Shown: positions 2,386 through 16,576 of the stretch, in pieces
Position numbering within the stretch: the first letter of the stretch is position 1
Layout: every line of letters starts with the position of its first letter
IMG/VR virus record: IMGVR_UViG_3300025098_000302
Location: 1 to 23,459 of that record
Direction: 5' to 3' (one strand)
From: a virus
Length of the DNA: 23,459 nt
Translations under genes and position numbers: made by a program
Notes under the pieces: model-generated
Databases searched by the model: none
What the model saw: the letters and a program-made list of their open reading frames with translations, nothing else
Told to the model about the DNA's origin: nothing

Positions 2386-2491
2386 CTATTACTTATAACA
2401 TAATAACAAGGGTAAAAAAACAAAAAAACGAGTAATAATACAAACATACCAATTAAATATATTATTAAGTTAAATTAAATTAAATTAAATT
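2386..2491 (+). promoter_or_regulatory. AT-rich leader of the chaperonin genes with TAAAT repeats
   Basis: This 106-base gap is the largest non-coding stretch in the window. It has four tandem TAAAT units at 2471-2490, directly against the groEL ATG at 2492. There is no Shine-Dalgarno sequence and no clear Bacteroidota TAnnTTTG -7 box. A short inverted repeat, ttactc / gagtaa (2366-2371 and 2380-2385), overlaps the end of the previous gene but has no T-run after it. The gap probably holds a promoter or a translation-enhancing leader, but I cannot locate a start site. Confidence 0.4.
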
Positions 2492-4048
2492 ATGTCAGAC
2501 AAAATTGTCAAGAACCTTAATTTTGGTGAAAACGCCAAAAACACGGTTTTTAAAGGTATAGAAAAACTAACAAAAGCTGTTAGTTCTACATTAGGCGCAA
2601 GCGGTAAATGCGTTATTTTAGAAGACGGTAGTGGTAAACCTGTTATTACTAAAGATGGTGTAACAGTTGCAGATTCTATCGTTTTATTAGATCCAGTAGA
2701 AAATATGGGTGCAACGCTTTTGAAAGAAGCAGCTCGTAAAACAGTAAAAGAAGCTGGTGACGGAACAACAACAGCAACAGTGTTAGCTCATTCAATACTA
2801 AAGGAAGCTTACAAGTTAAACAATGAATATAATAGTAGAGATTTAAAAAACGGTATTAATAATGCTACAGAAAGAGTAGTTAAGTACCTAGAAAAAAACT
2901 CTATAAAAGTTACAGGAGACATGATTGACTCTGTAGCTACTATATCAACAAATAACGATCCAGTTTTAGGGAAAGTTATTGCAGATGCTTTTAGATCTGT
3001 AGGTGAAACAGGTGTAGTAATAATGGAACCTACTAGCGAATCTGAAACCTACGTAGACGTTGTAGAGGGTATACAGTATGATAAAGGACTTACAAACTCT
3101 AACTTTGTAACAAACAAAGCTAATAAAACAGCTGAACTAGAAAACCCATTAGTTTTGTTAATTGATTCACCTGTTGAAAGCATTAGACAAATACAATCAG
3201 TATTAGAGTATGTAATTAAAAACAACAAACCTTTATTGATTATAGCAGACATAGAGCAACCTGTTCTATCTGCATTAGCTATGAACAAAGTAAAAGGTAA
3301 TATAAAAGTAAACGTTATAAACGCACCTACTTTTGGTATAAGTAAAAAAGACATGTTAACTGATTTGTCTATGCTTACTGGAGCTACAATCATAAATGAA
3401 GATCTTGGAGATGATCTTGATTTAATATCTGTAGATAAGTTAGGTGAATGCGTAAAGAGTATTACTAGTGATCAAGAAACTATTATACAGGTTAAAGAAG
3501 TATCTGAAGAAGTAAACGAGATTATTAGTAAAATAAAAGAGCAATTAGAAACTGAAAAATCTCCTGCTCAAGTTATAAGACTTGAAAAACGTCTTGCTCG
3601 TTTATCTGCTAAAGTAGCAGTTGTTAAGGTTGGAGCAAATTCAGAGATCGAACTTAAAGAAAAAACAGATAGAGTAGAAGATGCTATCTGTGCTACTAAA
3701 GCCGCAATAAAAGAGGGTATAATACCAGGTGGAGGTATTGCTTTGCTTAACGCGTCTACTAATACAAAAGCTAAAAATGAAGGTGAAGAAGTTTTGCTTA
3801 ACGCTATAAAAGCACCTTACGAAACTATTTTAACTAACGCAGGTCTTGAAGTTGTTTATCCTCAAATAAAAAATAGAGGTTTAAATGTGGTTACAGGAAA
3901 AGACGTGAATATGGTACGAGCAGGTATTATTGACCCATTACTGGTTACTAAAAGTGCTCTTAGAAACGCGGCTTCAGTAGCAACTACAATATTATCTACA
4001 GATTGTGTAATCAATAATTTAAGAGTTGGAGATGAAAGCAATAGGTAG
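2492..4048 (+). CDS. groEL: Phage chaperonin GroEL (Cpn60)
   Basis: This 518-residue protein aligns by eye along the whole length of group I chaperonins. The ATP site is intact: TKDGVTVA (Asp55, equivalent to E. coli Asp52), AGDGTTTATVLA at 88-99 (Asp90, equivalent to Asp87), RVEDA (Asp397, equivalent to Asp398) and GIIPGGGIALL at 409-419. The apical domain is present, with GIQYDKG, NKPLLIIADIE and LSMLTGATI, so the fold appears complete and active. It differs from cellular GroEL in two ways: the Gly-Gly-Met tail is missing, and two apical residues of the usual YLSPYF segment are changed (LTNSNF at 200-205). It would form the folding ring that uses ATP to refold trapped proteins, here most likely virion proteins given the late-gene neighbours. 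The groES start lies inside its 3' end. Very firm as a Cpn60; dependence on a particular cap is inferred. Confidence 0.97.
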   Translation: MSDKIVKNLNFGENAKNTVFKGIEKLTKAVSSTLGASGKCVILEDGSGKPVITKDGVTVADSIVLLDPVENMGATLLKEAARKTVKEAGDGTTTATVLAHSILKEAYKLNNEYNSRDLKNGINNATERVVKYLEKNSIKVTGDMIDSVATISTNNDPVLGKVIADAFRSVGETGVVIMEPTSESETYVDVVEGIQYDKGLTNSNFVTNKANKTAELENPLVLLIDSPVESIRQIQSVLEYVIKNNKPLLIIADIEQPVLSALAMNKVKGNIKVNVINAPTFGISKKDMLTDLSMLTGATIINEDLGDDLDLISVDKLGECVKSITSDQETIIQVKEVSEEVNEIISKIKEQLETEKSPAQVIRLEKRLARLSAKVAVVKVGANSEIELKEKTDRVEDAICATKAAIKEGIIPGGGIALLNASTNTKAKNEGEEVLLNAIKAPYETILTNAGLEVVYPQIKNRGLNVVTGKDVNMVRAGIIDPLLVTKSALRNAASVATTILSTDCVINNLRVGDESNR

Positions 4049-4292
4049 AAACTTAATAATAAAAAAGATAAAAGAAGGGACCACTAAAACAAAAGGTGGT
4101 CTGCTTCTTGCTGAATCTCATAGAGATGATATAAGATATATAGAAGCTAGTGTAACCTCTATTGGAAATGATGTAGTGGGTGTAAAAGAAAATGATAGAA
4201 TATTTTTTGACAAACACGCTGGTCATAAAATAGAAATAGGTAAAGACATTTATCACGTTATTAAGCTAGAAGATATAGTTGTTGTTTTATGA
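4032..4292 (+). CDS. groES: Phage co-chaperonin GroES (Cpn10)
   Basis: I chose the ATG at 4032 (86 residues) over the in-frame TTG at 4026, because MKAIGRNLIIKKI matches the usual Cpn10 opening. It overlaps groEL by 17 bases. Family features in order are the first strand with RNLIIKK, a mobile loop around residues 17-33 containing GGLLLAES (GGIVL in E. coli), ASVTSIGND, a roof-region segment, VKENDRIFFDKHAG, and the C-terminal strand YHVIKLEDIVVVL. Cpn10 caps the Cpn60 ring as a heptamer and closes the folding chamber. The length is slightly below the usual 95-100 residues. The tight overlap with groEL implies translational coupling and a matched pair. Confident. Confidence 0.92.
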   Translation: MKAIGRNLIIKKIKEGTTKTKGGLLLAESHRDDIRYIEASVTSIGNDVVGVKENDRIFFDKHAGHKIEIGKDIYHVIKLEDIVVVL

Positions 4293-4735
4293 AAAGGCTA
4301 GAAGCAAGAGATGTAAAAGATATGAACTTGCTAAAACATTACCGTATAATACGCAAATGGGCTTGCAAAAACAACAACCTTAATGATGCTGAGTTAGAGC
4401 TTCTAATATATCTTGATTGTATGGAATATTTTTCTAAACAAGACTTTAAAATAGGTACTTATTCTTACAGCTGGGATAATAGACGTTGGAATAAGCTTTT
4501 AAAATCTGGTTGGATAAAGGTTTGGAGACATAGAAATAGAACTACTCAAAAATATAATATATATCAAGTTTCTTTTCAATGTAAACAACTTATAAATAGA
4601 ATGTACAGGATAATGCTAGGCGAAGAAGATATACCGACTAGTTCAAGAAGAAACAAAATAATAAGCGGTAATAGTTATACGGATAAAGTTTTAACTACGG
4701 CCATATATAACGTTAACAAAGATAAAAAAAGATAA
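4289..4735 (+). CDS. Winged-helix-like putative DNA-binding protein
   Basis: This 148-residue basic protein starts on an ATGA overlap with groES, so it is probably translated from the same message. Residues about 15-100 read like a winged helix: helices around LLKHYRIIRKWACKN and LNDAELELLIYLDCMEYF, a probable recognition helix around WDNRRWNKLLKSGWI, then a wing-like strand pair VWRHRNRTTQKYNIYQVS. This layout resembles MarR-type replication or transcription regulators found as small proteins in phages. The C-terminus is lysine- and arginine-rich. It could regulate late transcription or bind DNA during packaging. The fold is inferred from pattern, not from an identified family. Confidence 0.5.
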   Translation: MKRLEARDVKDMNLLKHYRIIRKWACKNNNLNDAELELLIYLDCMEYFSKQDFKIGTYSYSWDNRRWNKLLKSGWIKVWRHRNRTTQKYNIYQVSFQCKQLINRMYRIMLGEEDIPTSSRRNKIISGNSYTDKVLTTAIYNVNKDKKR

Positions 4736-6940: not shown

Positions 6941-6994
6941 AAAAGTAAAATATAGTGTAACTATATAACTGTACAATAATTAAATTAAATCAAA
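6941..6994 (+). promoter_or_regulatory. AT-rich leader with two TAAAT units
   Basis: This 54-base gap has a short inverted repeat (tatag / ctata) and, near its end, two TAAAT units at 6981-6990 just ahead of the ATG at 6995. This resembles the longer TAAAT run in front of groEL. It may be a promoter or a translation leader; no standard promoter box is clear. Confidence 0.3.
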
Positions 6995-7267
6995 ATGAGT
7001 AAAATCAAAAAAGAACAATTAGAAAAAATTCAAGAACAACAAAGTAGGTTGCAAAGTATTTTAGTCGAGATAGGTGTAATGGAAGTTCGTAAACACGAAG
7101 CTACACACGCACAATCTGTTTTATCTCAAGAAATAGAGGCAACTAAAAAAGAACTTGAAGAAGAATATGGAGCTATTAACATTAATATGCAAGATGGCTC
7201 TTACACTATTATTGAAAAAGAAGAAGACGATGACACAGATCTAACTGTGGTTAAATCTGAGAACTAA
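6995..7267 (+). CDS. Short coiled-coil protein
   Basis: This 90-residue, highly charged protein is mostly one predicted coiled coil: residues about 4-55 are rich in Glu, Gln, Lys and Leu with heptad-like spacing (KEQLEKIQEQQSRLQSILVE and later QEIEATKKELEEEYG). The C-terminal part turns into a short strand region (NINMQDGSYTIIEKE) and an acidic tail. The stop codon overlaps the next start as TAATG, so the two are coupled. Similar short coiled-coil proteins occur near packaging genes in phages, but the role here is unknown. Confidence 0.6.
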   Translation: MSKIKKEQLEKIQEQQSRLQSILVEIGVMEVRKHEATHAQSVLSQEIEATKKELEEEYGAININMQDGSYTIIEKEEDDDTDLTVVKSEN

Positions 7268-7494
7268 TGAGTAGTGTAATTAGAAAAATAAGTATAGGTT
7301 CTGATTACAAAAATGATGCAATGCATTATGCTGTAGGTCAACAGGTTTATGGAGGTCATGAAATATCTCATATACTTCATAATGAATCTAATGACTCTTA
7401 CAGTATTCACATCAAGAAAAACAACGAGATATTGCCATGGAAGAAGTTTAATTCTAACATGGCTGTATCTGTTGAGTATGATTTAACATATTAA
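7267..7494 (+). CDS. Small conserved-looking phage protein
   Basis: This 75-residue protein is coupled on both sides by TAATG overlaps. It opens SSVIRKISIGSDYKNDAMHYAVGQQVYGG and then has strand-like segments ISHILHNESNDSYSIHIKKN and MAVSVEYDLTY. I have an impression of similar small proteins upstream of terminase genes in marine phages, but cannot name a family. It contains several His residues without a metal-site pattern. No membrane segment is seen. Its place between the coiled-coil protein and the tandem GroES-like protein suggests a shared expression unit. Confidence 0.55.
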   Translation: MSSVIRKISIGSDYKNDAMHYAVGQQVYGGHEISHILHNESNDSYSIHIKKNNEILPWKKFNSNMAVSVEYDLTY

Positions 7495-8099
7495 TGAAAA
7501 GTTTATTTGACTTTATCGTAAAGCCAGTTAATAAACGTTACGATACTGAAATTAAAATAGGTGACAAAAGCCTTATAACTAATACTAATACAGAAGACTT
7601 TAGAGCGGTAAGTAATACAGCAGAGGTTATATCTACACCATCTGCTTATTCTACTTCAATTAAAAAAGGTGATATAATAATTATACATCACAACGTTTTT
7701 AGAAGTTTCTTTGATATTAGAGGTAAACGAAAAGATAGTAGATCTAAATTTATTGATGATTTATATTTTTGTTCACCTGACCAAATCTACTTGTATAAAA
7801 GTGATAGTAATTGGAAAGCCTTTCAAGATAGGTGTTTTATAAAACCCTTATTAGATAACAATGATCTAACGCTTGACAAAGAGAGAAAGCTTATAGGAAT
7901 ACTAAAATATGGTAATAGTTCCTTAGAAGCTATTAAAATCGTTCCTGGTGACCTAGTAGGTTACACACCTTATGGTGAGTTTGAATTTATAATAGACGAC
8001 GAGCGATTGTATTGTATGAAATCAAATGATATTGTAATTAAGTATGAACGTAAAGGAGACGAAAAAGAGTATAATCCAAGCTGGGCAAAGAGCAGTTGA
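7494..8099 (+). CDS. Tandem GroES-like (Cpn10-fold) protein, putative
   Basis: This 201-residue protein seems to hold two Cpn10-like beta-barrels. The first half (about 9-118) has VNKRYDTEIKIGDKSLIT, then NTAEVISTPSAYST, then IKKGDIIIIHHNVFR, then YFCSPDQIYLYK. These follow the order of GroES strands: a loop, a valine-rich turn, KxGDxVxF, and the late xxxxxDIxAx strand. The second part (about 133-184) has IGILKYGN, IVPGDLVGYTPYGEFEF and DDERLYCMKSNDIVIKYE, close to the GroES end pattern GDxVxF ... xxEYLxMxxxDIxAxxE. No classical GGIVL mobile loop is seen in either half. It could be a second cap for the phage chaperonin, or a structural protein that borrowed the fold. Its last 56 bases overlap the next gene. 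The fold is inferred from motif order. Confidence 0.5.
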   Translation: MKSLFDFIVKPVNKRYDTEIKIGDKSLITNTNTEDFRAVSNTAEVISTPSAYSTSIKKGDIIIIHHNVFRSFFDIRGKRKDSRSKFIDDLYFCSPDQIYLYKSDSNWKAFQDRCFIKPLLDNNDLTLDKERKLIGILKYGNSSLEAIKIVPGDLVGYTPYGEFEFIIDDERLYCMKSNDIVIKYERKGDEKEYNPSWAKSS

Positions 8100-8316
8100 A
8101 GAATTAATAAAAGTAGCTAAAGAAGCTATTGTTGATTCTGATGATGATATTTCTGCAGATAGATTAAAAAATGCTGCAGCTACTAAAAAGCTAGCTATAT
8201 TTGATGCTTTTGAAATACTCAAACGCATTGAAGATGAAGAAAACATACTTAATGATAGACCTAGTGAAAAGAAAGAAAAAGCTTTCAAGGGGTTTGCTGA
8301 AGGAAGATCTAAGTAA
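8044..8316 (+). CDS. Possible small terminase subunit
   Basis: This 90-residue, helical, charged protein lies directly before the large terminase, whose ATG overlaps its stop as TAATG. Its only Met is the start at 8044, so it overlaps the end of the previous gene by 56 bases in another frame. Visible helices are AGQRAVEELIKVAKEAI, SADRLKNAAATKKLAIFDAFEILKRIEDEENIL and a lysine-rich tail EKKEKAFKG. The position and the all-helical character fit small terminase subunits, which recognise phage DNA and feed it to the large subunit. No helix-turn-helix can be pinned down, and the length is short for that role. Moderate to low confidence in the function. Confidence 0.45.
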   Translation: MNVKETKKSIIQAGQRAVEELIKVAKEAIVDSDDDISADRLKNAAATKKLAIFDAFEILKRIEDEENILNDRPSEKKEKAFKGFAEGRSK

Positions 8317-10526
8317 TGTACGAGCAATCATTATATAAAATATTACCTGATTATATTAAGCCTAAAATAATAAATAAAAAAAATAGGTATAATAAGTGGG
8401 AGTACGGCTACAACGAGGAGTTTGATATTGTTGTAATAAGTAAAACTGGTAAGATCGGTGATATATACGAGATACAAAACTTAAAAATAGCTTTACCAAA
8501 ACAAAAAGATGTTCACGAGTTTGAAGAAAATAAATGGAAACCTTTTGAATATCCTAAAGAACTACAGAGAATAAAAACTATATTTGATTGGAAAACATAC
8601 GACGAAAGTTTTAAAGAAAAATGGTACGATTATATAGATAATGAGTTTAAACGTCGTGAACAAGGTTTTCATTTTAAAAACAATAATAAACCTACTTATA
8701 TTACTGGTACTCATTATATGTATTTACAATGGAGTAAAATAGATGTAGGTAATCCAGATTTTAGAGAGTCAAATAGGTTATTTTTTATTTTTTGGGAAGC
8801 TTGCAAAGCTGATAAAAGATGCTTCGGTATGTGTTATTTAAAAAATAGACGTTCTGGATTTTCTTTTATGGCGTCTGGAGAAACAGTAAACGAAGCAACA
8901 ATATCTAGTGATTCAAGATTTGGTATATTATCAAAATCAGGTCCTGACGCAAAGAAAATGTTTACAGATAAAGTTGTGCCAATATCAGTTAATTATCCTT
9001 TCTTTTTTAAACCTATACAAGATGGTATGGATCGTCCAAAAACAGAGCTTGCTTATAGAGTTCCAGCATCAAAGCTTACAAGACGAAACATAACCTCTAC
9101 AGATAGACCAGAAGAATTACAAGGACTTGACACAACTATAGATTGGAAAAACACAGGTGACAACTCTTACGATGGTGAAAAACTAAAGCTATTAGTTCAC
9201 GATGAAAGCGGTAAGTGGGAAAAACCTAACAATATACTAAATAATTGGCGAGTAACAAAAACTTGTTTACGATTAGGTTCTAGAATTATTGGTAAGTGTA
9301 TGATGGGTTCAACATCAAACGCTTTAGATAAAGGAGGTGATAACTTTAAAAAACTTTATTATGCTTCAAACGTCGAAAAAAGAAACCGTAACGGACAGAC
9401 TAGTTCGGGATTATATTCTTTGTTCATACCTATGGAATGGAATTACGAAGGATTCATCGATTCTTATGGCTTACCTGTATTCGAAACACCAACTAAAAAA
9501 ACATATGGACCATTCGGCGACGAAATAACTCAAGGTGTTATTGAGCATTGGCAAAATGAAGTTGAAGGTTTAAAGGAAGATCAAGATGGATTAAATGAAT
9601 ATTATAGACAGTTTCCAAGAACAGAGGAACATGCTTTTAGAGACGAGGCAAAAGAGTCTATTTTTAATCTAACTAAAATATACGAACAAATAGATTATAA
9701 CGCTGATTTACATAATACATCAGCGGTAACAACTGGTAGTTTTCAATGGGAAAATGGTATTAAAGATACAAGGGTTTTATTCTACCCTAATAAAGATGGT
9801 AGATTTAAAATATCTTGGATTCCTCCAGCAAATTTACAAAACAAAATAGCTATTAAAAACGGTATTAAATATCCTGCTAATGATCACTGTGGTGCTTTTG
9901 GATGCGATAGTTATGATATATCCGGTACAGTTGATAAAAGAGGTTCTAATGGATCTCTACATGGATTAACAAAGTTTTCAATGGAAAACGTACCACCAAA
10001 TTTATTTTTTTTAGAGTATATAGCTAGACCACAAACAGCTGAAATATTTTTTGAAGACGTTTTAATGGCTTGCGTATTTTACGGCATGCCAATATTAGCC
10101 GAAAATAATAAGCCTAGATTATTGTATCACTTTAAGAGAAGGGGTTATAGAGGTTACTCAATGAATAGACCAGATAAAATATATAATAAACTATCTGTAA
10201 CAGAAAAAGAAATAGGTGGAATACCAAACTCTAGTGAAGATATGAAGCAAGCCCATGCTGCAGCAATAGAGTCTTACGTTGAGGAATATGTTGGTAACAC
10301 ACCTAATGGGTATGGTAATATGTATTTCCAAAGAACACTAGAAGATTGGGCTAAATTTAATATTAATAATAGAACTAAACACGATGCATCTATTAGTTCT
10401 GGTTTAGCTATAATGGCTTGTAACAAAAATAGGTATACACCTGTTGCTAAAAAAGAATACAAAAAAATAGACTTAGGTATAAAACGATACGATAACAGTG
10501 GAACATCGTCAAAAATTATAAGATAA
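8316..10526 (+). CDS. terL: Terminase large subunit (packaging ATPase and nuclease)
   Basis: This 736-residue protein couples to its neighbours by TAATG at the start and a direct stop-to-start join with the portal gene. ATPase: the Walker A position is LKNRRSGFSF (about 175-184), which keeps the Arg-rich lead and Gly-x-Ser but lacks the classical GKT/GKS lysine. Walker B is KLLVHDE (about 291-297), with Asp296 and Glu297. The coupling motif is MGSTSN (about 330-334). Nuclease: GAFGCDSYD (about 527-534, Asp531) is the usual first metal-binding Asp, EDVLMAC (about 580-586) the second acidic site, and KHDASISSGLA near 690 the third. It cuts concatemeric DNA and pumps it through the portal using ATP. 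The order terL-portal-scaffold-capsid supports the call. Variant Walker A sequences of the R-x-G-F-S type are known in terminases, so an active enzyme is likely. Confidence 0.9.
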   Translation: MYEQSLYKILPDYIKPKIINKKNRYNKWEYGYNEEFDIVVISKTGKIGDIYEIQNLKIALPKQKDVHEFEENKWKPFEYPKELQRIKTIFDWKTYDESFKEKWYDYIDNEFKRREQGFHFKNNNKPTYITGTHYMYLQWSKIDVGNPDFRESNRLFFIFWEACKADKRCFGMCYLKNRRSGFSFMASGETVNEATISSDSRFGILSKSGPDAKKMFTDKVVPISVNYPFFFKPIQDGMDRPKTELAYRVPASKLTRRNITSTDRPEELQGLDTTIDWKNTGDNSYDGEKLKLLVHDESGKWEKPNNILNNWRVTKTCLRLGSRIIGKCMMGSTSNALDKGGDNFKKLYYASNVEKRNRNGQTSSGLYSLFIPMEWNYEGFIDSYGLPVFETPTKKTYGPFGDEITQGVIEHWQNEVEGLKEDQDGLNEYYRQFPRTEEHAFRDEAKESIFNLTKIYEQIDYNADLHNTSAVTTGSFQWENGIKDTRVLFYPNKDGRFKISWIPPANLQNKIAIKNGIKYPANDHCGAFGCDSYDISGTVDKRGSNGSLHGLTKFSMENVPPNLFFLEYIARPQTAEIFFEDVLMACVFYGMPILAENNKPRLLYHFKRRGYRGYSMNRPDKIYNKLSVTEKEIGGIPNSSEDMKQAHAAAIESYVEEYVGNTPNGYGNMYFQRTLEDWAKFNINNRTKHDASISSGLAIMACNKNRYTPVAKKEYKKIDLGIKRYDNSGTSSKIIR

Positions 10527-12966: not shown

Positions 12967-14187
12967 ATGTCACAAGAAAAACAAGAGGGAGAGTTTTCTT
13001 TAAAAGGTAAGAAAACTAAACCGAAAAATTTAGGTAAAACACAAGAAGGACCTATTAAAGTAAACTTATCTACTCCAGTTGAAAAACAAGTAGCAGAAGA
13101 AGAAAAAGATGTTACTAGAGTAGTAATTGGTTCTGAAGAAAAACAACCAGAAGAAAATGCCAATACAGAGCAAGAAACAACAGAAGTGGTTGCAGATAAA
13201 CAAACCGGAGTTGTACAAGAAGTGGGTGAAGAAGTATCATCAGGGGAAAGCACCGTTCAAGATGAAGGTCCAATCATCCAAGAAATAACTGAGGAAGAAG
13301 TAGAGAAAGTTGAAAAACTAGAAAACGAATTAGATAAAGCTATAGACAATAAAGATAATAGTGGAACAAAACTACCTGAAAATATTGAAAAACTAGTTTT
13401 ATTTATGGAAGAAACTGGTGGTAGTATCAGCGACTATGTTAGACTAAACGCTGACTATTCTAATGTTGACAACAATACACTACTTAAAGAATATTACAAA
13501 AAAACAAAACCTTACTTAGACAGTGAGGATATAAGTCTCTTAATTGAAGATTTTTCATATGATGAAGATATAGATGAAGAAAGAGATATACGCAAGAAAA
13601 AACTTGCATTTAAAGAAGAAGTTGCAAAAGCCAAAAACTTTTTAGAGGAAACTAAGAGTAAATATTACGATGAGATCAAGTTGAGACCAGGCGTAACTCA
13701 AGACCAACAAAAAGCAATGGACTTTTTTAACAGATATAATGAACAACAAACAGTAGCTGAGCGACAGCATGAAGAATTTAAAAACCAAACTAAAAAACTT
13801 TTCAACGAAGACTTCAAAGGTTTTGATTTCAATTTAGGTGAAAAAAAATTTAGATATGGTGTTAAAGATCCTTCAAAAGTTGCAGAAAGACAATCAAACA
13901 TTAATAATCTTGTAGGGAAGTTCCTTAATGAAGATGGTAGTGTAAAAGATCCGATTGGCTATCACAAGGCTATGTATGCTGCTTCAAATGTTGACACTAT
14001 TGCAAATCATTTTTACGAACAAGGTAAAGCTGACGCTGTAAAAGAAGTTATTAGTAATTCTAAAAACCCTAGTTCAGCGCCTAGACAAACACCTCAAGGT
14101 GAGTTTAAAAATGGTATAAAAGTAAAAGTGTTAAACAACGATGCACTTAGCGCATCAAAACTAAAGATTAAAAAAATAAAAATTTAA
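12967..14187 (+). CDS. Capsid scaffold-like protein
   Basis: This 406-residue protein sits between portal and major capsid genes, where scaffold proteins lie. Residues 1-130 are strongly acidic and probably disordered (Glu-, Val-, Gln- and Thr-rich). The centre is helical and charged (SYDEDIDEERDIRKKKLAFKE, then AKAKNFLEETKSKYYDEIK). The C-terminal part has FKGFDFNLGEKKFRYGVKD and a basic tail (KLKIKKIKI), a common place for a scaffold to grip capsid subunits. No protease motif is seen. It would guide assembly of the empty shell and then leave. Some phages place an internal head protein here, which is the main alternative. Confidence comes from position and composition, not from a family match. 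Confidence 0.65.
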   Translation: MSQEKQEGEFSLKGKKTKPKNLGKTQEGPIKVNLSTPVEKQVAEEEKDVTRVVIGSEEKQPEENANTEQETTEVVADKQTGVVQEVGEEVSSGESTVQDEGPIIQEITEEEVEKVEKLENELDKAIDNKDNSGTKLPENIEKLVLFMEETGGSISDYVRLNADYSNVDNNTLLKEYYKKTKPYLDSEDISLLIEDFSYDEDIDEERDIRKKKLAFKEEVAKAKNFLEETKSKYYDEIKLRPGVTQDQQKAMDFFNRYNEQQTVAERQHEEFKNQTKKLFNEDFKGFDFNLGEKKFRYGVKDPSKVAERQSNINNLVGKFLNEDGSVKDPIGYHKAMYAASNVDTIANHFYEQGKADAVKEVISNSKNPSSAPRQTPQGEFKNGIKVKVLNNDALSASKLKIKKIKI

Positions 14188-14208: not shown

Positions 14209-15651
14209 ATGGCTTTATCACCAACATTCGGTTCAATTAAACCGAGTCAAAAACAACAATTATTGTCTGACAACTATTTAAGTTTTACAGACGGATCAGG
14301 TAACGACTTTGCACAACAATATCTACCTGAAATATATGAACAAGAAGTAGAGCGTTACGGAAACAGAACTCTTTCTGGATTCTTACGCATGGTAGGAGCT
14401 GAAATGCCTATGACTTCTGACCAAGTAGTATGGTCTGAGCAAAATAGATTACATGTAGCTTATGACAATGTAACTAAAACTGCTGCAGGAAATACTTTAA
14501 CTTTCGCTTTAAACGCTACTGCTGGTAATAGCTTTGTTGCTAATGTAATTTCACCAAACCAAACTATCGTAGTTTTAGATCCTGCTACAGGAGCTGAAGT
14601 AACTGCTTTAGTTGAATTAAGTGTTAACACATCAGCTGTCCTAGCTACACTTACAGTTGCTACTTATACAGGTGCTGATCTTGACGCTACTTTTGGCGCT
14701 GGTGCAGTAACTGGTCTTAAAATCTTTGTTTATGGTTCTGAATTCAAAAAAGGAACTGGAGACGTAGATCTTAAATCAATTACTCCTTCTTTCACTCAAT
14801 TTTCTAATTCACCTATCATCATCAAATCTAAATACGCTATTTCTGGATCTGATGCTGCACAAATTGGTTGGGTTGAAGTTGCTACTGAAGATGGAACAGG
14901 AGGTTATTTATGGTACTTAAAAGCTGAGTCTGAAACTAGACTACGTTTTGAAGACTATTTAGAAATGTCTGTAGTTGAAGGAACTAAAGCTGCTGCTGGA
15001 TCTGGTGTTGCTGCTATTGCTGGAGACGTTAAGTACAAAGGAACTGAAGGTCTTTTCGCTGCTATCAAATCAAGAGGAAACACTTTCTCTGCGTTTGCAC
15101 CTGCTGCTGGAGTTTTAACTGACTTTGATGCTATTCTTAAAAATCTTGATACTCAAGGAGCTATTGAAGAAAACATGCTTTTCGTAAATAGACAACTTTC
15201 TTTAACTATCGACAACATGTTAGGTGGTGTATCAAGTGGAGCTAACGGTGGTGTTGCTTATGGATTATTTGAAAATTCAGAAGATATGGCACTTAACCTT
15301 GGTTTCTCTGGATTTAGAAGAGGTTCTTATGACTTCTATAAAACTGACTGGAAATACTTGAACGATGCTTCAACTCGTGGAGCTGTTGCAGATGCAGGTA
15401 TCGAAGGTGTATTAGTACCAGCTGGAACTTCTACAGTTTATGACCAAATTTTAGGAACTAACATCAGACGTCCATTCTTGCACGTACGTTATAGAGCGTC
15501 TCAAACTGATGACAGAAGAATGAAATCTTGGTTAACTGGATCTGTTGGAGGAGCTTACACTTCTGATCTTGATGCAATGGAAGTACACTTCCTATCTGAA
15601 AGATGTTTATGTGTTCAAGGTGCTAACAACTTTGTAATCTTTACTGACTAA
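14209..15651 (+). CDS. Major capsid protein
   Basis: This 480-residue protein follows the scaffold gene after 21 bases. The sequence has the style of HK97-fold capsid proteins of Bacteroidota podoviruses, including crAss-like phages as I recall them: LPEIYEQEVERYGNRTLSGF near the start, GAIEENMLFVNRQLSLTID in the centre, LGFSGFRRGSYDFYKTDWKY, and a C-terminal block with NIRRPFLHVRYRAS, QTDDRRMKSWLTGSVGG and LSERCLCVQGANNFVIF. An inserted domain with many Thr and Ala residues lies at about 95-180. It forms the shell. Its codons end in C more often than those of its neighbours (TTC, AAC, GAC, ATC), as in highly expressed genes. A strong terminator follows. No cleavage site for a protease is obvious. 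High confidence. Confidence 0.9.
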   Translation: MALSPTFGSIKPSQKQQLLSDNYLSFTDGSGNDFAQQYLPEIYEQEVERYGNRTLSGFLRMVGAEMPMTSDQVVWSEQNRLHVAYDNVTKTAAGNTLTFALNATAGNSFVANVISPNQTIVVLDPATGAEVTALVELSVNTSAVLATLTVATYTGADLDATFGAGAVTGLKIFVYGSEFKKGTGDVDLKSITPSFTQFSNSPIIIKSKYAISGSDAAQIGWVEVATEDGTGGYLWYLKAESETRLRFEDYLEMSVVEGTKAAAGSGVAAIAGDVKYKGTEGLFAAIKSRGNTFSAFAPAAGVLTDFDAILKNLDTQGAIEENMLFVNRQLSLTIDNMLGGVSSGANGGVAYGLFENSEDMALNLGFSGFRRGSYDFYKTDWKYLNDASTRGAVADAGIEGVLVPAGTSTVYDQILGTNIRRPFLHVRYRASQTDDRRMKSWLTGSVGGAYTSDLDAMEVHFLSERCLCVQGANNFVIFTD

Positions 15652-15742: not shown

Positions 15743-16576
15743 ATGGCTACAAAAGCTAAACAAGCAACAGAAAAAATTGAGGTTGCGCCTCAAACAGTTA
15801 GTGCTAAAAAAGTACAAACAAAACAAGAACCTGCTAAACCAAAGTGGGAAATTAAAGATAGAACCTATATTTTAAAAGGTGCATACACTCCATTAACTCA
15901 TACTTTAGCATCGAGACATTCTGCTAGATTTCCTTTGTTATGGTTTGATGAAGAAACTGGAGAACAAAAAGAATTAAGATATGCTACAAATCAAAACTCA
16001 CCACTTGTAGAAGAACAAAAAGGTGAAGCAACTCTTGGGCATATTATATTTGATAACGGTACTTTATTTGTACCTAAGCAAAAACAAAATTTACAAAAAC
16101 TTTTATCTATTTACCATCCAGCGTTAAACAAAAAATATTATGAGTTTAATAAGGTTGAAATAGCTGAAAATGAGCTAGATGATTTAGAGCTAGAAATAGA
16201 TGCTTTAAATGCTGCAAAATCTATGGATATAGATCAAGCTGAAGCTATATTAAGAGTAGAGATTGGATCTGAAGTAACTAAGATGACTAGTAGAGAAATA
16301 AAAAGAGACTTACTTATGTTTGCAAAACACAATGCGTCTTTATTTCTTGATTTAGCTAACGATGAAAACGTACAACTTAGAAACTTTGCTATTAAAGCCG
16401 TAGAAGCTAATATAATTAACTTAGCTGGTGACCAAAGAACATTTACTTGGGCTACAAACGGTAAAAAATTAATGACAGTTCCATTTGATGAACATCCATA
16501 CTCAGCTATGGCTGCTTTCTTTAAAACAGATGAAGGTTTAGAAGTTTTTAAATCTATAGAGAAAAAACTCTCATAA
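15743..16576 (+). CDS. Head-module protein of unknown function
   Basis: This 277-residue protein lies between the capsid protein and the adaptor genes. The first 35 residues are Lys-, Gln- and Ala-rich and probably disordered. Next comes a compact region with KWEIKDRTYILKGAYTPLTH, FPLLWFDEETGEQKELRYATN and TLGHIIFDNGTLFVPKQKQN. The second half is helical (ENELDDLELEIDALNAAKSM, then SREIKRDLLMFAKHNASLF) and ends with a segment carrying RTFTWATNGKKLMTVPFDEH. I recall similar unnamed proteins in Bacteroidota phage head modules. It may be a head decoration, vertex or internal protein, but no function is assigned. It is bounded by the capsid terminator and a hairpin, so it may form its own small transcription unit. 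Confidence 0.65.
   Translation: MATKAKQATEKIEVAPQTVSAKKVQTKQEPAKPKWEIKDRTYILKGAYTPLTHTLASRHSARFPLLWFDEETGEQKELRYATNQNSPLVEEQKGEATLGHIIFDNGTLFVPKQKQNLQKLLSIYHPALNKKYYEFNKVEIAENELDDLELEIDALNAAKSMDIDQAEAILRVEIGSEVTKMTSREIKRDLLMFAKHNASLFLDLANDENVQLRNFAIKAVEANIINLAGDQRTFTWATNGKKLMTVPFDEHPYSAMAAFFKTDEGLEVFKSIEKKLS

What the first reader, a model, noticed from the sequence alone, without database searches (positions are those of the whole stretch)
2492..4292. A complete phage-encoded GroEL-GroES pair in reversed order
Seen: a full-length Cpn60 with all ATP-site motifs, then a Cpn10 whose ATG lies inside the 3' end of groEL. Known: bacterial operons place groES first, and most phages carry at most a GroES replacement, while full GroEL genes are known only in some phages, including marine ones. 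Inference: the pair is a self-contained folding machine for virion proteins, since it lies between tail fibre, lysis and head genes.
Basis: partly seen in the sequence, partly recalled or inferred. Interest (0 to 1): 0.75.

Follow-up and report, generated by a model that had tools for sequence, protein, structure and literature searches.

The report
Phage chaperonin pair in reversed order
A virus of marine Bacteroidota bacteria carries its own two-part protein-folding machine with the two genes in the opposite order to all bacteria examined here; such pairs are already known in related phages, but the fixed reversed order and an unusual repeated leader shared with capsid-region genes are worth following up.

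Summary
groEL is at 2492-4048 (518 aa, Pfam Cpn60 E=8e-56). groES starts at ATG 4032, 17 nt inside the 3' end of groEL, and ends at 4292 (Cpn10 E=4e-12). Key ATP-site residues and the GroES mobile-loop motif are kept, and both genes are under purifying selection. It is not a recent host capture: the closest cellular GroELs are about 45% identical, and the protein sits in a phage-only clade (100/100). The reversed order is fixed in the lineage: 81/81 in the window family, 79/80 and 13/13 in two related phage families, 0/77 in bacterial loci. The kind is known: annotated Elemovirus isolates and MW202828 carry the pair in this order. So this is a new member of a known kind. I also found: a second, long GroES-like gene two genes upstream of the terminase (7494-8099); eroded ring-ring contacts and a lost GGM tail, suggesting a single ring; and a tandem pentamer leader, (TYHAA)n, directly before the groEL ATG. 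In an unbiased scan of viral contigs that leader sits mostly before groEL and a few late, capsid-flanking genes of this lineage. Virion-protein folding is likely but unproven.

The parts
2470..2489 (+). tandem pentanucleotide leader (TTAAA)x4 ending 2 nt before the groEL ATG
   Evidence: found before groEL in 68 of 81 family members and 0 of 78 cellular groELs
2492..4048 (+). groEL, group I chaperonin, 518 aa, without GGM tail
   Evidence: AlphaFold2 model pLDDT 86.5, Z 45.4 to E. coli GroEL 4ki8
4032..4048 (+). 17-nt overlap: groES start codons written in another frame over the last codons (ESNR, stop) of groEL
   Evidence: the overlap is 17 nt in 74 of 81 family members
4032..4292 (+). groES, co-chaperonin Cpn10, 86 aa, with GGLLL mobile loop and a short roof segment
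   Evidence: model pLDDT 81.8, Z 12.1 to T. thermophilus Cpn10 1wnr
4289..4735 (+). conserved neighbour of unknown function (phrog_17028), 148 aa, overlaps groES by 4 nt; possibly a winged-helix protein (by eye only)
   Evidence: next to groEL-groES in 81/81 window-family loci (same strand), 78 of 81 MW202828-family loci and 13 of 15 elemo-family loci (opposite strand); Pfam gives nothing
6980..6994 (+). second pentanucleotide array TTAAATTAAATCAAA directly before ATG 6995
6995..7267 (+). 90-aa gene that shares the pentamer leader; function unknown
   Evidence: no PHROG match
7494..8099 (+). second, long GroES-like protein, 201 aa, two genes upstream of the terminase
   Evidence: phrog_13932 co-chaperonin GroES E=4e-22; GroES profile matches it twice, C-terminal half vs bacterial GroES HHalign E=1.7e-6; annotated as co-chaperonin GroES in Panino, elemo and phi38:1
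8316..10526 (+). terminase large subunit
   Evidence: phrog_6681 E=5e-164; 65% to MW202828
10527..12932 (+). portal protein
   Evidence: phrog_6547 E=1.6e-141
12967..14187 (+). gene before the capsid gene, scaffold-like position; homologues carry the pentamer leader
14209..15651 (+). likely major capsid protein (virion structural)
   Evidence: phrog_13704 E=6.5e-93; assignment as capsid protein is by position and size
15743..16576 (+). gene after the capsid gene; homologues carry the pentamer leader

Best explanation
A lytic-type podovirus of Bacteroidota (probably Flavobacteriaceae) encodes its own group I chaperonin and co-chaperonin as an old, vertically kept phage pair. Shown: both proteins have the conserved sequence and predicted fold of working Cpn60 and Cpn10, they are under purifying selection, and the order groEL then groES with an overlap is fixed in the lineage. 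Inferred: groEL is translated from the pentamer leader and groES by coupling at the overlap, so that GroES output follows GroEL output. GroEL binds ATP, takes up non-native phage proteins, and is capped by its own GroES through the GGLLL mobile loop. The clients are probably virion proteins, since the leader before groEL is shared with late, capsid-flanking genes. Loss of the ring-ring contacts and of the GGM tail suggests a single-ring (7+7) machine with a slightly larger cage.
For: Pfam and PHROG matches; catalytic D52, D87 and D398 kept in 81/81; GroES mobile loop kept; dN/dS 0.06-0.08 for groEL and 0.06-0.20 for groES; models match GroEL and Cpn10 structures; the groEL-groES order is fixed in three phage families and changes once on both trees; 17-nt overlap in 74/81; (TYHAA)n leader shared by groEL with genes 6995, 12967 and 15743; inter-ring residues A109, E434, R452 and V464 eroded and GGM tail absent in 81/81.
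Against: No biochemical or expression data. Substrates are not known. In phi38:1 the genes lie in the replication module, and in the elemo and MW families groEL has its own TAnnTTTG box, so a late-only role is not general. Apical substrate-binding residues differ from E. coli (Y199L, Y203N/H, L234Q), so the client range may differ. The leader's function is unknown.
Confidence: 0.7

Rival explanations
1. The pair is a recently captured host groESL operon kept as an auxiliary gene set, rearranged in this virus alone.
For: The closest cellular relatives are Flavobacteriaceae GroELs, the likely host family.
Against: Identity is only about 45%; the protein belongs to a phage-only clade with support 100/100 and a long stem; the reversed order is shared by hundreds of viral loci.
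Confidence: 0.03
2. The phage GroEL works mainly with host GroES, or the phage GroES mainly with host GroEL (as T4 gp31 does), rather than as a pair.
For: T4 gp31 is the known case; the mobile-loop motif is generic; the GroES roof segment is short (10 residues against 14 in Flavobacteriaceae and 19 in Enterobacteriaceae).
Against: Both genes are always present together with a conserved overlap; apical residues of GroEL and the mobile loop of GroES are each fixed in the family, which suggests co-adaptation.
Confidence: 0.17
3. The chaperonin serves mainly early functions (replication enzymes, or stabilising host proteins during infection), not virion morphogenesis.
For: In phi38:1 the genes lie among DNA polymerase genes; the elemo and MW families have a host-type TAnnTTTG box before groEL.
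Against: In the window family groEL lies in line with tail, lysis and head genes, lacks the TAnnTTTG box (0 of 79), and shares its leader with capsid-flanking genes.
Confidence: 0.2
4. The reversed order and overlap are a neutral historical accident with no effect on stoichiometry.
For: Order varies among Bacteroidota phages and cellular-type order works too; a single ancestral rearrangement explains the pattern.
Against: The 17-nt overlap is kept in 74 of 81 members although sequences have diverged to 70% identity, but overlaps are also simply hard to undo.
Confidence: 0.4

Closest known systems
groEL-groES of uncultured podovirus ctfjg026 (MW202828, Manatee Spring)
   Same: same order with overlap, same neighbours, terminase 65% identical
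   Different: GroEL only about 35% identical; neighbour gene 4289 on the opposite strand; TAnnTTTG box before groEL in that family
Flavobacterium Elemovirus phages (elemo group, e.g. NC_055853)
   Same: annotated groEL then groES, the long second GroES before the terminase, and pentamer arrays before genes in the same late positions
   Different: pair on the strand opposite to the late genes; GroEL 39% identical; no leader array before groEL
Cellulophaga phage phi38:1 and Calle phages (Pervagoviridae)
   Same: related terminase, long GroES and gene-4289 homologue; encode GroES and GroEL
   Different: cell-like order (groES, another gene, groEL) in the replication module
Maribacter phage Panino
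   Same: GroEL upstream of a GroES-like gene; the paper reports phage GroEL and GroES homologues (PMC11590407)
   Different: 135-nt ORF between the two genes; GroEL 40% identical
Pseudomonas phage EL, OBP and Bacillus phage AR9/PBS1 chaperonins
   Same: phage-encoded Cpn60-like proteins; single-ring forms reported
   Different: very distant (22-27% identity), no GroES next door
T4 gp31 co-chaperonin
   Same: phage Cpn10 fold with a short roof
   Different: works with host GroEL; the window GroES model is closer to bacterial Cpn10 (Z 12.1) than to gp31 (Z 9.2-10.0)

Membership tests
Group I chaperonin (Cpn60/GroEL) | full-length Cpn60 domain match | tested here: met
   PF00118 E=8e-56, profile 1-487 of 490
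Group I chaperonin (Cpn60/GroEL) | ATP-binding and hydrolysis residues (D52, D87, D398, GDGTTT, GGG) | tested here: met
Group I chaperonin (Cpn60/GroEL) | GroEL fold with equatorial, intermediate and apical domains | tested here: met
   model pLDDT 86.5, Z 45.4 over 507 residues to 4ki8
Group I chaperonin (Cpn60/GroEL) | staggered double ring with conserved inter-ring contacts | tested here: inconclusive
   contact residues eroded, but oligomeric state cannot be computed here; single-ring group I members exist
Group I chaperonin (Cpn60/GroEL) | C-terminal GGM-rich tail (common, not defining) | tested here: not met
   0 of 81 family members against 75 of 81 bacterial GroELs
Cpn10/GroES | Cpn10 domain and fold | tested here: met
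   PF00166 E=4.1e-12; Z 12.1 to 1wnr
Cpn10/GroES | mobile loop with hydrophobic tripeptide | tested here: met
   KTKGGLLL in the window
Cpn10/GroES | heptamer that caps GroEL | not testable with these tools
   needs biochemistry or cryo-EM
Bacteroidota podovirus group of elemo, phi38:1 and MW202828 | shared terminase, portal, capsid and long GroES | tested here: met
Cpn20-like double Cpn10 (for gene 7494) | two Cpn10 domains in tandem | tested here: inconclusive
   GroES profile finds two weak stretches; only the C-terminal half is clear by HHalign
T4 gp31-type co-chaperonin | acts with host GroEL, no phage GroEL | tested here: not met
   phage groEL is adjacent in 81 of 81 loci

The most novel reading that the evidence does not exclude
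The (TYHAA)n pentamer tract is an undescribed cis-acting expression element of this Bacteroidota phage lineage, forming the 5' leader of groEL and of a small set of late genes around the capsid gene, and it couples synthesis of a phage-specific, probably single-ring GroEL-GroES machine to virion assembly.
Probability: 0.4. Interest if true: 0.6.

Novelty: new member of a known kind. Interest (0 to 1): 0.42.

Why it matters
Phage chaperonins with a private co-chaperonin are a natural test of what GroEL must do for virus assembly. The relatives include cultivated phages (elemo, phi38:1, Panino), so the role, ring state and gene order can be tested directly. The pentamer leader, if functional, would be a new type of leader in bacteria whose ribosomes do not use Shine-Dalgarno pairing.

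Tried and rejected
Recent host capture: rejected by the tree and by identity. A roofless GroES as a special phage trait: tempered, because Flavobacteriaceae GroES also has a shortened roof (14 residues against 10 here and 19 in Salmonella). GroES model as gp31-like: not closer to gp31 than to bacterial Cpn10. phi14:2 g106 as an unannotated GroES: not similar. tblastn of the short GroES against phage records found nothing at E 1e-3, even in relatives that have it, so it says nothing about absence. One strict clade of all reversed-order GroELs: the free tree does not show it, and the AU test neither rejects nor proves it (p 0.143). Rfam: no match in the window. Sigma-70-type promoter and terminator scans: no excess over shuffles. 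Leader as a stable RNA structure: no (z 0.45). Leader as a plain Kozak-like A-3 context: not a full explanation, because the phase of the array to the ATG varies. First dN/dS for groES was out of frame and was redone. A first ATG count in the leader scan missed codons that overlap the last unit and was redone. Marine et al. 2017 on virioplankton chaperonins was not held, so it is cited only through other papers. Searches for a description of such a leader found none, but they were few and narrow.

Full report
OBSERVATION. The window is a 23,459-base virus record. groEL lies at 2492-4048 and encodes 518 aa; groES starts at ATG 4032, inside the last codons of groEL, and ends at 4292. The overlap is ATGAAAGCAATAGGTAG: in the groEL frame it falls in the codons for E-S-N-R-stop, in the groES frame it starts M-K-A-I-G. 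Pfam and PHROGs identify both proteins clearly. The ATP-site residues checked are kept apart from P33A and A480V. D52, D87 and D398 are invariant in all 81 family members, and P33A is fixed. The GroES mobile loop reads KTKGGLLL. AlphaFold2 models built on family alignments match GroEL (Z 45.4, 507 residues) and Cpn10 (Z 12.1). Synonymous changes far exceed non-synonymous ones (dN/dS 0.06-0.08 for groEL; 0.06-0.20 for groES).

RELATIVES AND ORDER. All 80 have groES downstream of groEL, with a 17-nt overlap in 74 of 81 including the window. A family around MW202828 has the same order in 79 of 80 (14 of these with the genes further apart), and the elemo family in 13 of 13 with a detectable groES; 77 of 77 bacterial loci with both genes have groES first. 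Phages phi38:1, Calle, immuto and SJC03 have cell-like order. In an ML tree of 74 GroELs the window family is one clade (100/100), outside cellular GroELs. Gene order needs one change on the GroEL tree and one on the weakly resolved GroES tree. Strict monophyly of the reversed-order set is neither shown nor rejected (AU p 0.143), and the root rests on the very distant EL and PBS1 sequences. So the pair is old in phages and not a recent host capture.

WHAT IS KNOWN. Elemovirus isolates and MW202828 are already annotated with groEL followed by groES. Nishimura et al. 2017 (PMC5332604) found GroEL homologues in 36 environmental genomes of the phi38:1 group, related to those of Cellulophaga phages. 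The Panino paper reports both proteins (PMC11590407), and the phage EL structure paper states that some phages have both (PMC7185714, citing Marine et al. 2017, which I could not read). I found no paper that remarks on the reversed order, but the literature search was limited.

(a) Ring contacts: residues at the ring-ring interface of GroEL that are conserved in bacteria (A109, R452, E461, V464) vary in the window family, and the segment around E434 is deleted in 81/81; the GGM tail is absent in 81/81 against present in 75 of 81 bacterial sequences. This suggests relaxed ring-ring contact and perhaps a single ring; it is a prediction only. (b) A second GroES-like protein, 201 aa, lies at 7494-8099, two genes upstream of the terminase; phrog_13932 (co-chaperonin GroES) E=4e-22. 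It is found in 77 phage records, where several depositors call it GroES or Cpn10. Its C-terminal half aligns with bacterial GroES (E=1.7e-6); the N-terminal half is weaker. (c) The gene after groES (4289-4735) is next to the pair in all three reversed-order families, but on the opposite strand in two of them; phi38:1 has it far from its chaperonin genes. It is probably a core gene of the phage group rather than a chaperonin partner.

THE PENTAMER LEADER. Directly before the groEL ATG lies TTAAATTAAATTAAATTAAA (2470-2489). A tract of at least three pentamers of the form T-Y-H-A-A (or close) is found before groEL in 68 of 81 family members, 19 of 78 in the MW family, and 0 of 78 bacterial groELs. 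In family loci nearly every such array on the coding strand is followed by an ATG (126 of 127). An unbiased scan of viral contigs for AAATYAAATYAAATYAAAT, without asking for a start codon, gave 86 arrays in the loci examined; 69 directly precede an ATG that opens an ORF of at least 40 aa, against 6 with a CAT in the mirror position. Of these 69, 56 fall in six protein families, five of them homologous to window genes: groEL 20, gene 6995 14, gene 12967 12, gene 15743 5, gene 7267 2. In elemo isolates similar arrays stand before the homologues of 12967 and 15743 and before the small gene upstream of the long GroES. In the elemo and MW families groEL has a TAnnTTTG box about 30 nt upstream (15 of 15 and 70 of 77, shuffled 0.5 and 4.4); the window family has none (0 of 79). 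In the first two the tract would thus be the short 5' UTR. In F. johnsoniae, adenines at -3, -6, -12 and -13 and low structure favour initiation (PMC6847099); the phase of the array to the ATG varies, so this alone does not explain the period of five. Whether it acts on translation, transcription or through a bound protein is open.

MECHANISM. Best supported: a working, phage-specific GroEL-GroES machine, with groES translated by coupling at the overlap, made together with late proteins and probably folding virion proteins. Shown: sequence, predicted fold, selection, order, leader. Inferred: activity, coupling, single ring, clients. Against a purely late role stand phi38:1 (replication module) and the separate promoter-like box in the elemo and MW families.

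VERDICT. The finding is real and correctly described, but it is a new member of a known kind. Its interest lies in the fixed reversed order, the extra GroES-like gene and, above all, the unexplained leader.

Noticed in passing
window 2470-2489 and 6980-6994: Tandem pentanucleotide arrays (TYHAA)n directly before ATGs; in an unbiased scan of viral contigs they mark groEL and a few late genes of this phage lineage. Function unknown.
   Followed up: partly
window 7494-8099: Second, long GroES-like protein (phrog_13932) two genes upstream of the terminase, conserved in 77 phage records.
   Followed up: partly
window 4289-4735: Gene of unknown function (phrog_17028) kept next to the chaperonin pair in three phage families, on either strand; far from the chaperonins in phi38:1.
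   Followed up: partly
elemo family (L082, L253-L266) and MW202828 family (L083, L173-L252), about 30 nt before groEL: TAnnTTTG promoter-like box in 15 of 15 and 70 of 77 members, but 0 of 79 in the window family.
   Followed up: partly
L409 3644 (+): A stand-alone GroES-like ORF of another type that also has the pentamer leader.
   Followed up: no
window 14209, and the capsid genes of elemo, Panino, phi38:1 and MW202828: The capsid gene itself has an A-rich upstream stretch without the pentamer period, unlike its neighbours on both sides.
   Followed up: no
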